From NCBI GenBank assembly GCA_902518185.1, contig CABYFG010000001.1, positions 62,001 through 126,000 of the forward strand: DNA of 64,000 bases, in the 5' to 3' direction. Position numbers and translations under genes: made by a program. Each line of letters opens with the position of its first letter. Positions within the stretch are counted from its first letter, which is position 1. A model generated the notes under the pieces. It was not told the DNA's origin. It searched no databases and saw only the letters and a program-made list of their open reading frames with translations. The stretch is from an uncultured Pelagibacteraceae bacterium (GTDB lineage: Bacteria > Pseudomonadota > Alphaproteobacteria > Pelagibacterales > Pelagibacteraceae). Positions 43,900 to 50,146 of the stretch are shown here, one piece after another.

Positions 43900-45041
43900 T
43901 GAAAAAAGTAGGAATTATTGGAGCAGGCATCTCAGGGTTATATATAGCTAATTTGTTTAAAAAAAAGTCAGATTATCAAGTTATGATTTTTGAAAAAAAT
44001 AACTTAATAAACTTAGAAGAGGGGTATGGAATTCAATTATCTGTAAATGGCGTAAAGCTTTTAAATGAAATTGAGTTTGATAAATTAAAAAACGATCAAA
44101 AGTTTAATCCAAAAAAGATAAATTTTTATTCGGATAAAAATTTAAGCAAAATATGTGAACTAAATATTTCTGATTTCAATTTAGAAAATTGTCGATACAC
44201 TACTTTAAAAAGATCAAATTTAATTAATTTTTTAAAAAAAGATGTTGAAGATTTAATTAGATTTAATCATTCTATCTCAAAAATTGATCAAGATAATCAG
44301 AGAATCCAACTTATTTTTGAAAATAATGAAAACTTTGAATGTGATTATTTAATTGTTTCAGATGGAGTTTTTTCAAAAAGCAAAAGTCTGATCTCTATTA
44401 ATAAAAATCAACCAAAATACAATAATACATTGGCGATTAGAGGAATGATACCAAATTCACCTAAAATTGATAATGAAAACATTTCACTATTTTTAGGCTC
44501 TGATTTTCATCAAGTAATTTATCCAGTATCTCAAAATGGAGATTTAAATTTGATAGCTATTATGAAATATGAACTTACACTTGAACAGCAAAAAAATTTC
44601 TCTTTATTTAAGGAAGATTCTTTCGTTAAAAAGGTTTTAGAAAAAATTCCAAAAAAAAATAAAGAATTTTTTGAGAAGATAAAAGAACTAAAAGTATTTC
44701 CAGTATTTGTTAGTCGTGATTTTTTTAAAAGTAAAAATAATAAAATTCATTTTATAGGCGATGCTTTTTTTGCTTTTCCACCCTCATTTGCTCAAGGAGC
44801 GTCTCAGTCTATAGAGGGTGCTTATGAATTATTCAAAAGTATAGAAAATAAGACAGAAAGTGATTTTTTTCAAAATAGAGTCATTAAAACTCAAATGATT
44901 AATAATAGATCTAAATTTAATCAATTCGTGTTCCATCTATCAAATCCTATAAATGTTTTTTTTAGAAATATTTTTTTAAAGAAATTTATTAAAAATAAAA
45001 AGTTTTTAGACTCCTATTTGGGTAAAATTTATCATAATTGA
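43899..45041 (+). CDS. FAD-dependent monooxygenase, UbiH/salicylate hydroxylase-like
   Basis: This 380-residue flavoprotein has the FAD fold VGIIGAGISGLYIANLFK (residues 4-21), a middle DG motif in DYLIVSDGVFSKSK near 150 and the second FAD motif IHFIGDAFFAFPPSFAQGASQSIEGA near 285-310. The family hydroxylates aromatic rings, including ubiquinone precursors. The substrate here is unknown. It overlaps mutY by one base and the convergent ccrM by 10 bases. Lys/Asn-rich like its neighbours, with no sign of transfer. Confidence 0.82.
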   Translation: MKKVGIIGAGISGLYIANLFKKKSDYQVMIFEKNNLINLEEGYGIQLSVNGVKLLNEIEFDKLKNDQKFNPKKINFYSDKNLSKICELNISDFNLENCRYTTLKRSNLINFLKKDVEDLIRFNHSISKIDQDNQRIQLIFENNENFECDYLIVSDGVFSKSKSLISINKNQPKYNNTLAIRGMIPNSPKIDNENISLFLGSDFHQVIYPVSQNGDLNLIAIMKYELTLEQQKNFSLFKEDSFVKKVLEKIPKKNKEFFEKIKELKVFPVFVSRDFFKSKNNKIHFIGDAFFAFPPSFAQGASQSIEGAYELFKSIENKTESDFFQNRVIKTQMINNRSKFNQFVFHLSNPINVFFRNIFLKKFIKNKKFLDSYLGKIYHN

Positions 45042-46108
45042 CTTTTTGAAATTAATCTTTGTCTCAATTTATCTATTGGTATTGTTTGACCATTAAGATT
45101 GTAATGCCAATAAGTCCATCCGTTACAACTTTCTGCTCCTAAAATTGATGCAGCTACTTGATGAATTGAGCCTTCTTTTTTGTCGTGCTTAATGCTTCCA
45201 TCAGCCATTATTTTTGCACTAATTTTTCTCTTATCATCAAAAATGGTAGTTCCAGGCTTAATAATTCCTAACTCGACTAATGAGCCAAAAGGTATTCTTG
45301 GCTTCGATCGATTATTTTGAAGTGTGTCCAGAAAATTATCTTCAATAGGTTTTGTGTTTTTTAGTCTTTCTTCGGCTGCTTTATAATAGGTTTTTTCTTT
45401 TTCAATACCAAAATAAAATCTACCTAACTTTTTTGCAACTGTTGCAGTTGTGCCAGATCCTAAAAAAGGATCTAAAACTAAATCATTTTTGTTTGAAGTG
45501 GCTAATAAAATTCTGTGAAGTAAAGCCTCAGGTTTTTGTGTAGAATGAACTTTTTCTCCATTTTTTTTTAATCTCTCTGAACCATTGCAAATCGGTAACT
45601 CCCAGTTAGATCTCATTTGAAGATCATCATTTAAGCATTTTAAGGATTGATAATTAAAAGTATATTTTGATTTTTCAGTTTTTGATGCCCAAATTAAAGT
45701 TTCATGTGCATTTGTAAAACGTGTGCCTCTAAAATTCGGCATTGGATTCTTTTTATTCCAAATAACATCATTTAAAATCCAAAAATTTAAATTTTGAATA
45801 ATTGTTCCAACTCTAAAAATATTATGATAACTGCCGATAACCCAAATAGCTCCATTTTTTTTTAGAATTCTTTTACATTCAGATAACCATAAGTATGTAA
45901 ATTCATCGTACTTTTGGAAATTTTTAAATTGATCCCACTTATCATTTACTGCATTTACTTTTGATCTATCAGGTCTTGTTAGCTCATTTTTTAATTGTAA
46001 GTTGTAAGGAGGGTCGGCGAAAATTAAATCAAAAGTTTCATTAGGAATTTTTTTAAGTTCTTCAAAACAATCTCCATTAACTAATTTATTTTTTATGTCT
46101 AAATTCAT
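45032..46108 (-). CDS. ccrM: CcrM-type adenine DNA methyltransferase (GANTC)
   Basis: This beta-class N6-adenine methylase of 358 residues has the catalytic motif ADPPYNLQL near residue 31 and SAM motif LDPFLGSGTTATVAKKLGR near 210 (order typical of the beta class). After the core comes a C-terminal extension of about 90 residues (GTTIFDDKRKISAKIMADGS, GSIHQVAASILG) diagnostic of the cell-cycle methylase CcrM. There is no restriction partner nearby. It starts 86 bases after rnhB, and three GANTC sites lie in its leader. Confidence 0.94.
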   Translation of the reverse strand: MNLDIKNKLVNGDCFEELKKIPNETFDLIFADPPYNLQLKNELTRPDRSKVNAVNDKWDQFKNFQKYDEFTYLWLSECKRILKKNGAIWVIGSYHNIFRVGTIIQNLNFWILNDVIWNKKNPMPNFRGTRFTNAHETLIWASKTEKSKYTFNYQSLKCLNDDLQMRSNWELPICNGSERLKKNGEKVHSTQKPEALLHRILLATSNKNDLVLDPFLGSGTTATVAKKLGRFYFGIEKEKTYYKAAEERLKNTKPIEDNFLDTLQNNRSKPRIPFGSLVELGIIKPGTTIFDDKRKISAKIMADGSIKHDKKEGSIHQVAASILGAESCNGWTYWHYNLNGQTIPIDKLRQRLISKSQL

Positions 46109-46121
46109 TTTATAAAAATAA

Positions 46122-46174
46122 ATTAGACTCTAAAAAGATTCTTGGGTCAACCTATGATTGCATAAACAAGACTC
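46122..46174 (-). promoter_or_regulatory. Predicted ccrM promoter with three GANTC sites
   Basis: On the minus strand TTGACC (46145-46150) is separated by 17 bases from TCTAAT (46122-46127), a near-consensus housekeeping promoter 14 bases before the ccrM ATG. GANTC sites lie at 46126-46130 (overlapping the -10 box), 46137-46141 (in the spacer) and 46170-46174 (upstream). In Caulobacter GANTC sites in the ccrM promoter adjust its expression to methylation state, so autoregulation is plausible here. Confidence 0.55.
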
Positions 46175-46194
46175 GACTTGTATGATATTATCAA

Positions 46195-46782
46195 CTACTT
46201 ACAATATCTAGTGTATTTCTTGAGTACAATCTCATTTATGGGTGAAAAAGTTTTTCTGTGATGAATAGTAATTCCCTCCTTTTTAATAGCTTTCAGATGC
46301 TGTTTGGTACCGTAGCCAAAATTTTTATTCCAGTGATATTTGTTAAATTTTTCATGTAGAGTAGTTATATACCAATCACGTTTTACTTTTGCTAGTATTG
46401 ATGCTGCTGAGATAGATGGTATTTTTTGATCACCTTTGATAATTGATTTTAAATTATAATTTTTTAATTGAGGTAATTTGTTTCCATCGATTAAAGTTAG
46501 TGAGGGTTTTTTTTTTAACTTTTTAATCGCTCTTTTCATAGCCAGTAAACTTGCATTAAGGATGTTCATTTTTTCTATTTCTTTTACTGACGCTTTTCCG
46601 ATAGCCCATGTAGAATTCTCTTTGATATATTTTGATAAAATTTCCCTATTAGTCTTTGTCAAGCTTTTTGAGTCTCTTAGTACTTTTTTATTAATTGATT
46701 TTTCAAGTATTACTGCAGCAGCAAACACTGGGCCAACTAGGCTTCCTCGACCAACTTCATCTACTCCAGCAATTTTTTTCAT
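46195..46782 (-). CDS. rnhB: Ribonuclease HII
   Basis: It cuts at ribonucleotides in DNA and RNA-DNA hybrids. The 195-residue protein begins MKKIAGVDEVGRGSLVGPVF, with the catalytic Asp-Glu pair in GVDEVGRG, a further Asp in LTLIDGNKLP near 97 and the segment ISAASILAKVKRDWYI near 124 with the last acid. The tail NKNFGYGTKQHLKAI and HHRKTFSP is typical. Its start overlaps the glycosylase stop by one base. Confidence 0.96.
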   Translation of the reverse strand: MKKIAGVDEVGRGSLVGPVFAAAVILEKSINKKVLRDSKSLTKTNREILSKYIKENSTWAIGKASVKEIEKMNILNASLLAMKRAIKKLKKKPSLTLIDGNKLPQLKNYNLKSIIKGDQKIPSISAASILAKVKRDWYITTLHEKFNKYHWNKNFGYGTKQHLKAIKKEGITIHHRKTFSPINEIVLKKYTRYCK

Positions 46783-50072: not shown

Positions 50073-50146
50073 TGGGGCGTAGCCAAGCGGTAAGGCACGG
50101 GTTTTTGGTACCTGCATCCTAGGTTCGAATCCTAGCGCCCCAGCCA
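50073..50146 (+). tRNA. tRNA-Gln (anticodon TTG)
   Basis: The 74-base cloverleaf has acceptor stem TGGGGCG/CGCCCCA, D arm GCC...GGC, anticodon stem CGGGT/ACCTG with loop TTTTGGT (anticodon TTG, reading CAA/CAG), T arm CTAGG-TTCGAAT-CCTAG, discriminator G and an encoded CCA at 50144-50146. An extended -10-like TGTTATACG ends about 8 bases before it. The cca start codon follows after three bases. Confidence 0.96.

What the first reader, a model, noticed from the sequence alone, without database searches (positions are those of the whole stretch)
46109..46194. Three GANTC sites in the predicted promoter of the GANTC methylase gene
GANTC occurs at 46126-46130, 46137-46141 and 46170-46174, within 49 bases; at about 30% GC one site per roughly 360 bases is expected. 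One overlaps the -10 box and one lies in the spacer of a near-consensus promoter (TTGACC-N17-TCTAAT). In Caulobacter, GANTC sites at the ccrM promoter mediate methylation-dependent control. A slow-growing, streamlined cell keeping this loop suggests methylation-timed expression.
Basis: partly seen in the sequence, partly recalled or inferred. Interest (0 to 1): 0.62.

Follow-up and report, generated by a model that had tools for sequence, protein, structure and literature searches.

The report
Methylase gene's promoter carries its targets
In the ocean bacterium SAR11, the gene for a DNA-marking enzyme has the enzyme's own target sites built into its start switch, and a similar arrangement recurs in a good share of the related bacteria examined, which suggests the enzyme may time its own production through the marks it makes.

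Summary
Observation confirmed. GANTC lies at 46126-46130, 46137-46141 and 46170-46174 in the 86-bp rnhB-ccrM gap. The window has 92 GANTC against 179 expected; this leader holds 3 of the 4 outside predicted genes. GANTC-N6-GANTC occurs at one place in the 84%-complete assembly.

The two core sites are conserved as GANTC: in 127 distinct SAR11-genus loci, -10 site 124, spacer site 121 (N and spacing vary), both 118. The third is optional (75). A second SAR11 family has both in 16 of 20; other Alphaproteobacteria in 27 of 68 (shuffles 0.01). Five other genera of the own family have the standard pair in 0 of 18.

Best reading: a methylation-sensitive ccrM core promoter giving CcrM feedback on itself, in SAR11 without CtrA (0 of 11 over cut-off). 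GcrA is present but unproven as reader: outside SAR11 the pair does not track GcrA (p = 1), and the core sites do not fit Caulobacter's extended GcrA motif. The sign is open. GANTC at a ccrM promoter is known from Caulobacter; the geometry, its spread and the CtrA-free setting look new.

The parts
45032..46108 (-). ccrM: GANTC-type adenine methyltransferase, 358 aa (N6_N4_Mtase + RAMA domains)
   Evidence: Caulobacter CcrM 6pbd, E=2.2e-136; PF01555, PF18755; best NCBIfam model CcrM, below its cut-off
46195..46782 (-). rnhB (ribonuclease HII), codirectional upstream gene
   Evidence: an rnhB match was printed for each plus-oriented genus locus (minus-oriented ones not examined there); 59 of 68 class leaders
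46109..46194 (-). ccrM leader / promoter region between rnhB stop and ccrM ATG
46145..46150 (-). -35 hexamer TTGACC (TTGAC in 127 of 127 genus loci)
46122..46127 (-). -10 hexamer TCTAAT, 17-bp spacer; its first two bases are the TC of GAGTC
46126..46130 (-). GANTC site 1 (GAGTC) overlapping the -10
   Evidence: 124 of 127 genus loci; 20 of 20 second-family leaders
46137..46141 (-). GANTC site 2 (GAATC) in the spacer, 11 bp upstream of site 1
   Evidence: 121 of 127; N = A 102, C 11, G 6, T 2; spacing 11 bp in 100, 12 bp in 21
46170..46174 (-). GANTC site 3 (GAGTC), 44 bp upstream of site 1; optional; the only one of the three that fits YGAKTCK
   Evidence: 75 of 127, each at exactly 44 bp, all four N types
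46156..46162 (-). TGCAATC, the window's version of a near-invariant TTCAATC element upstream of the -35; reader unknown
   Evidence: columns -54 to -48

Best explanation
A methylation-sensitive sigma-70 core promoter that puts ccrM under feedback from its own product. Two GANTC sites lie inside the -35/-10 promoter, one in the spacer and one forming the upstream edge of the -10, so RNA polymerase and CcrM see the same bases. Proposed cycle: the fork passes ccrM, the sites become hemimethylated, the promoter is open (probably helped by the sigma-70 cofactor GcrA), CcrM accumulates, remethylates the sites and damps its own gene. SAR11 would do this without CtrA, the activator used in Caulobacter. 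SHOWN: the sites, their geometry, their conservation as GANTC, presence of CcrM and GcrA genes, no CtrA over cut-off. INFERRED: that methylation changes promoter output, that GcrA reads it, and the sign. I put about 0.8 on methylation-sensitive autoregulation of some kind; given that, about 0.5 on 'on when hemimethylated', 0.4 on 'activated when fully methylated', 0.1 on something else. The confidence below is for the whole statement including its sign (0.8 x 0.5).
For: (1) Selection on GANTC itself: the spacer site is in 121 of 127 distinct genus loci; all four N bases occur and the spacing changed (11 or 12 bp) while GANTC was kept (Fitch: 6 presence, 5 N, 3 spacing changes). (2) Specificity: of 16 palindromes wxNx'w', GANTC is the most enriched in genus leaders (14.1x, next 7.7x) and class leaders (5.0x, next 1.7x); pairs 9-12 bp apart occur in 118 of 127 genus leaders, at most 2 for any other palindrome. 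(3) Depth: second SAR11 family, both sites in 16 of 20 and the -10 site in 20 of 20 (11 distinct promoter cores); 27 of 68 other alphaproteobacterial leaders with TTGAC-N2-6-GANTC-N3-8-GANTC, shuffle mean 0.01, maximum 1, reversed and opposite-strand controls 0. (4) Geometry: in the class the -10 site is 14 bp past TTGAC in 31 of 35 and followed by A...T in 32 of 35, so C of GANTC is -10 base 1. (5) Rarity: in 10 own-genus genomes the pattern hits the ccrM promoter in all 10, with 4 other hits. (6) GcrA in 45 of 50 SAR11 genomes, aligned to the DNA-binding and sigma-binding parts of Caulobacter GcrA. (7) Literature: GcrA prefers methylated GANTC (PMC3667746, sections 9 and 11) and stimulates open-complex formation (PMC7403470, passages); GANTC is methylated in SAR11 (PMC9516812 and PMC12570018, passages).
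Against: No methylation, expression or start-site data for this promoter. In the class the dual site does not track GcrA (22 of 27 dual vs 32 of 41 others have it; Fisher p = 1) and tracks CtrA positively (24 of 27 vs 20 of 41, p = 7e-4, relatedness not corrected). Dual sites persist in 5 class genomes and two SAR11 genomes of 99% and 93% completeness (G104, G110) with no GcrA hit. Conversely 18 leaders from five other genera of the own family have 0 standard pairs (13 one site, 5 none; 9 of 11 in two of these genera have a second GANTC shifted downstream), although all 18 genomes have GcrA. The two core sites of the window do not fit the Caulobacter activation motif YGAKTCK, only the optional site 3 does, though Brevundimonas showed no such preference (PMC7987155, passages). 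That paper found few orthologs with high probability of GcrA control in Pelagibacter. At the -10 site N is G in all 124 intact copies, so there the constraint may be the -10 itself. 21 of 68 class leaders have neither site. The GcrA Pfam model also rings in one unexpected control genome (Sulfolobus).
Confidence: 0.4

Rival explanations
1. Same autoregulation, opposite sign: GcrA-sigma70 activates ccrM from methylated sites, as at Caulobacter mipZ or podJ; fork passage would lower expression and the loop would hold the methylated state.
For: GcrA binds fully methylated sites best, and mutating GANTC cripples several Caulobacter promoters by 60-80% (PMC3667746 sections 9 and 11). The -10 TCTAAT lacks A at position 2, which would suit an activator-dependent promoter.
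Against: Dual sites do not track GcrA in the class and persist in genomes without a GcrA hit. The core sites do not fit YGAKTCK. Caulobacter ccrM is described as expressed from hemimethylated DNA (PMC10073500; PMC2217572, a model paper, passages).
Confidence: 0.3
2. The conserved bases are core-promoter or transcription-factor sequence that happens to contain GANTC; methylation is incidental.
For: GAGTCTAAT at the -10 is almost invariant, N included, and the near-invariant TTCAATC and TTGAC elements are not GANTC. Methylation effect untested.
Against: The spacer site keeps G, A, T, C while N and its position vary; the class uses GACTC, GAATC and GATTC at the -10 site; GANTC is the top palindrome of 16 in genus and class leaders.
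Confidence: 0.15
3. Chance cluster in an AT-rich streamlined genome, kept by recent common descent.
For: A post hoc triple within 49 bp somewhere in 64 kb has P = 0.15.
Against: Conservation across the order and class with controls near zero; one place in the assembly.
Confidence: 0.02

Closest known systems
Caulobacter crescentus ccrM promoter (CtrA-activated, two GANTC sites; PMC10073500 one passage, PMC2217572 passages; original papers recalled, not read)
   Same: ccrM expression thought to depend on the methylation state of GANTC sites at its own promoter.
   Different: 0 of 11 SAR11 genomes have CtrA over cut-off. The SAR11 sites lie in the spacer and -10; from recall, the Caulobacter sites lie in the leader. 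The Caulobacter sequence was not identified here.
GcrA-CcrM promoters of Caulobacter and Brevundimonas (mipZ, ftsZ, podJ; PMC3667746 two sections, PMC3708114 and PMC7987155 passages)
   Same: GANTC in the promoter region of a gene, in a genome that encodes GcrA and CcrM.
   Different: Target is the methylase gene itself, with two sites fixed in the core promoter; GcrA dependence not shown, no co-occurrence with GcrA in the class, core sites outside YGAKTCK.
Agrobacterium gcrA promoter (six GANTC in the 250 bp upstream, repression by methylation proposed; PMC11514494 passages)
   Same: A CcrM-GcrA circuit gene with clustered GANTC in its own regulatory region.
   Different: Different gene; start site and core-promoter placement not given in the passages seen. 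The SAR11 gcrA of this genome has no GANTC in the 1,500 bases upstream.

Membership tests
CcrM (orphan GANTC adenine methyltransferase) | N6_N4 methylase domain plus C-terminal RAMA domain, full-length match to CcrM | tested here: met
   PF01555 E=4.7e-68, PF18755 E=2e-18; 6pbd E=2.2e-136 over residues 9-351
CcrM (orphan GANTC adenine methyltransferase) | NCBIfam equivalog NF050803 cut-off (830 bits) | tested here: not met
   575.9 bits: best match, but below the cut-off of a model whose name points to Caulobacter-type CcrM
CcrM (orphan GANTC adenine methyltransferase) | methylates GANTC | not testable with these tools
   reported for other Pelagibacter (PMC9516812, PMC12570018, passages), not for this strain
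GcrA-CcrM regulated promoter | GANTC within or beside the -35/-10 of a sigma-70-like promoter | tested here: met
GcrA-CcrM regulated promoter | extended motif YGAKTCK proposed for Caulobacter GcrA activation | tested here: not met
   neither core site fits; only optional site 3 does; Brevundimonas shows no preference (PMC7987155)
GcrA-CcrM regulated promoter | GcrA encoded in the genome | tested here: met
   PF07750 E=1.9e-38; 7ye1, 5yiu, 5yix matches; NCBIfam NF050816 105 bits, below its 280-bit cut-off
GcrA-CcrM regulated promoter | promoter architecture co-occurs with GcrA across genomes | tested here: inconclusive
   22 of 27 dual vs 32 of 41 others, p = 1
GcrA-CcrM regulated promoter | GcrA binding and methylation-dependent activity | not testable with these tools
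   needs template and ChIP experiments
Caulobacter-type CtrA-activated ccrM promoter | CtrA present | tested here: not met
   NF045991: 0 of 11 SAR11 genomes over cut-off, best 148 of 350 bits; 1 of 14 controls over cut-off, shown to be Caulobacter; Brilli et al. also report no ctrA ortholog in Pelagibacter (PMC2877005, passage)

The most novel reading that the evidence does not exclude
The ccrM core promoter with its embedded GANTC pair is an ancestral alphaproteobacterial self-timing device: methylase and RNA polymerase act on the same bases, so the gene is switched by the passing fork and reset by its own product. SAR11 runs a stripped-down form without CtrA, a minimal methylation clock in one of the ocean's most abundant bacteria; the persistence of the pair in genomes without a GcrA hit suggests that RNA polymerase may sense the methyl marks directly.
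Probability: 0.35. Interest if true: 0.75.

Novelty: new variant of a known kind. Interest (0 to 1): 0.58.

Why it matters
How a streamlined SAR11 cell without CtrA couples gene expression to replication is open. A conserved promoter with two fixed methylation sites gives a concrete, testable node. It also supplies a consensus seen in part of the class (TTGAC-N14-GANTCAnnnT with a second GANTC in the spacer) that predicts which ccrM genes may be under methylation feedback and where the pair has been lost, and it can be checked against existing long-read methylomes.

Tried and rejected
Third site (46170) as an essential element: rejected, present in 75 of 127 with 18 presence changes on the tree. 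Strict helical phasing of upstream sites: suggestive in SAR11 (11 and 33 bp) but upstream distances scatter in the class. Loss of CtrA as the reason for the dual site: not supported, because in the class the dual site goes with CtrA. GANTC in the own gcrA promoter: none in the 1,500 bases upstream; the two sites near it lie inside gcrA. The alignment of seven leaders used poorly chosen ranges and was not used. In one search the class-geometry part had an indexing error and was replaced; its window gene-leader counts stand. One search translated the wrong strand and was not used.

Class: 68 leaders from 59 genera, taken down the score list (154 of 190 genomes with a match; list cut in the output), the own genome and G101 left out and five passed over on the way (G398, G360, G385, G306, G395). 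Second family: 20 leaders of 45 genomes with a match, with 11 distinct promoter cores. Own family, other genera: 18 of 18 with a match.

Literature: papers were seen as passages or sections, none whole. Searches and the passages opened showed no description of the SAR11 ccrM promoter; many listed papers were not opened, and the library holds open-licence PubMed Central papers only. Haakonsen 2015 and Wu 2018 are not held and are known to me through other papers and recall.

Full report
WHAT IS THERE. On the minus strand of the window, ccrM (45032-46108) follows rnhB (46195-46782) with an 86-bp gap. The gap reads TTGACC-CAAGAATCTTTTTAGAG-TCTAAT, a sigma-70-like promoter whose -10 begins with the last two bases of a GANTC and whose spacer holds another; a third lies 19 bp upstream of the -35. 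A start 6-8 bases after the -10 would leave a leader of about 6-8 bases before the ATG (inference). The gene is CcrM by full-length match to the Caulobacter enzyme (6pbd, E = 2.2e-136) and by its methylase and RAMA domains; it scores below the NCBIfam CcrM cut-off (576 of 830 bits). The 80 best relatives in named genomes are Pelagibacteraceae / Pelagibacterales records.

IS IT MORE THAN CHANCE. GANTC is rare here: 92 in the window against 179 in shuffles. Four lie wholly outside predicted genes, three in this leader and one in a tRNA-Gln gene. P for 3 or more in the leader is 3.3e-4, but a post hoc triple somewhere has P = 0.15. GANTC-N6-GANTC occurs at one place in the 84%-complete assembly, this one; the reversed pattern at 3. 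The count alone is moderate evidence; conservation is decisive.

CONSERVATION IN THE GENUS. From 139 loci I kept 127 distinct leader-plus-gene sequences (114 distinct leaders). TTGAC followed 15 bp later by the -10 site position is found in 127 of 127. GAGTC is intact at the -10 in 124; a GANTC in the spacer is present in 121, as GAATC 102, GACTC 11, GAGTC 6, GATTC 2, and 11 bp (100) or 12 bp (21) from the -10 site; both sites are in 118. On a ccrM tree the spacer site takes 6 changes of presence, 5 of N and 3 of spacing. So what is kept there is GANTC, not a fixed word. At the -10, N is G in all 124, so the -10 itself may add constraint. The third site is present in 75 of 127, each at exactly 44 bp upstream of the -10 site, in all four N forms, with 18 presence changes: real but dispensable. 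A near-invariant TTCAATC lies just upstream of the -35, TGCAATC in this window.

BEYOND THE GENUS. The second SAR11 family has the -10 site in 20 of 20 leaders and both in 16 of 20 (11 distinct cores), plus a GANTC starting 14-15 bp before TTGAC in 20 of 20. Five other genera of the own family have 0 of 18 with both at the standard places: 13 keep one, 5 none. In two of these genera 9 of 11 leaders have a pair whose second member is shifted downstream to 16 bp from the first. Among 68 other alphaproteobacterial leaders, 27 have TTGAC-N2-6-GANTC-N3-8-GANTC against a shuffle mean of 0.01 and maximum 1; reading the leaders backwards or on the other strand gives 0. There the -10 site is 14 bp past TTGAC in 31 of 35 and followed by A...T in 32 of 35, so that GANTC's C is the first base of a -10 of form CAnnnT. 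20 leaders have one site, 21 neither. GANTC is the top palindrome of 16 in the class: 229 seen, 45.6 expected; next best 1.7-fold. In the second family CCNGG is marginally higher by ratio (9 seen, 1.0 expected, against 57 seen, 6.3 expected) but pairs are seen for GANTC in 16 of 20 and at most 5 for others.

IS IT ccrM-SPECIFIC. The pattern searched in 36 genomes hits the ccrM promoter in 10 of 10 own-genus genomes, with 4 other hits there, in 5 of 6 of the second family (5 other hits), in 0 of 5 from other own-family genera (one hit elsewhere), and in 9 of 15 class genomes (14 other hits). One recurring other arrangement precedes a DivIC-type septum initiator gene in the two loci checked (L280, L285).

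THE CIRCUIT. GcrA is present in the own genome and in 45 of 50 SAR11 genomes, aligned in both its DNA-binding and sigma-binding parts to Caulobacter GcrA; the Pfam model also rings in one unexpected control (Sulfolobus). No CtrA: 0 of 11 SAR11 genomes over cut-off, best 148 of 350 bits, in line with Brilli et al. (PMC2877005, passages and section 8), who scanned GANTC upstream of cell-cycle genes in alphas but could not derive methylation control from it. ccrM lies 218-226 kb from parB in five complete genus genomes and 277-339 kb in three of two other genera; two further genus genomes were not computed for lack of an exact contig length. In the genus that is roughly a third of a replichore if parB marks the origin (inference), so the promoter would become hemimethylated fairly early. 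PMC9516812 (passages) reports near-complete GANTC methylation in one cultured SAR11 strain and lower methylation towards the origin; PMC12570018 (passages) reports GANTC methylation in a sea-ice Pelagibacter.

MECHANISM AND ITS WEAK POINTS. GcrA prefers methylated GANTC, with different footprints on hemi- and fully methylated ctrA P1 (PMC3667746 section 9), and stimulates open-complex formation (PMC7403470 passages). A promoter with two such sites in its core is a natural target. But the dual site does not track GcrA in the class (p = 1) and tracks CtrA positively (p = 7e-4; relatedness not corrected); it persists in five class genomes and two SAR11 genomes (99% and 93% complete) with no GcrA hit; the window's core sites do not fit Caulobacter's YGAKTCK, although Brevundimonas shows no such preference (PMC7987155); and that study saw few likely GcrA targets in Pelagibacter. 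So RNA polymerase may sense methylation directly, or GcrA is diverged or missing from those assemblies. The sign is open: Caulobacter ccrM is described as expressed from hemimethylated DNA (PMC10073500 passage; PMC2217572 model), whereas mipZ and podJ are activated by methylation (PMC3667746 section 11). I lean slightly to 'on when hemimethylated, damped when fully methylated'.

KNOWN OR NEW. Methylation-sensitive ccrM expression is a known idea from Caulobacter. New here, as far as the searches show (plus passages), are the fixed two-site core-promoter geometry, its conservation in SAR11 and recurrence in the class, its rarity in the genome, and the CtrA-free setting.

Noticed in passing
window 46156-46162 (-); genus loci -54 to -48 before the ccrM ATG: TTCAATC (TGCAATC in the window) is almost invariant just upstream of the -35 and forms TCAA-N7-TTGA with it; in the second SAR11 family (20 of 20) and part of the class (27 of 35 with a -10 site) a GANTC lies in about this place. 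Reader unknown.
   Followed up: partly
L280 1501-1527, L285 1501-1527: In other alphaproteobacteria a TTGAC-GAATC-TGTGATTC promoter-like stretch lies just before a DivIC-type septum initiator gene; L284 has the same stretch, its gene not checked.
   Followed up: partly
L171, L172, L181, L184 (own-family genera g2 and g4): These leaders have neither core GANTC site at ccrM although their genomes keep GcrA: natural loss comparisons.
   Followed up: partly
genomes G104 and G110 (second SAR11 family): No GcrA hit at 99% and 93% completeness although both core GANTC sites are kept at ccrM.
   Followed up: no
L003, L005, L006 and other loci with rnhB ending 38 bp before ccrM: In some strains the rnhB stop codon falls in the -35 TTGAC, so part of the ccrM promoter lies inside rnhB.
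   Followed up: no
window 1-64000: GANTC is about two-fold depleted (92 vs 179); by a simple ORF model the only site outside predicted genes other than the three in the ccrM leader is in tRNA-Gln at 50127.
   Followed up: yes
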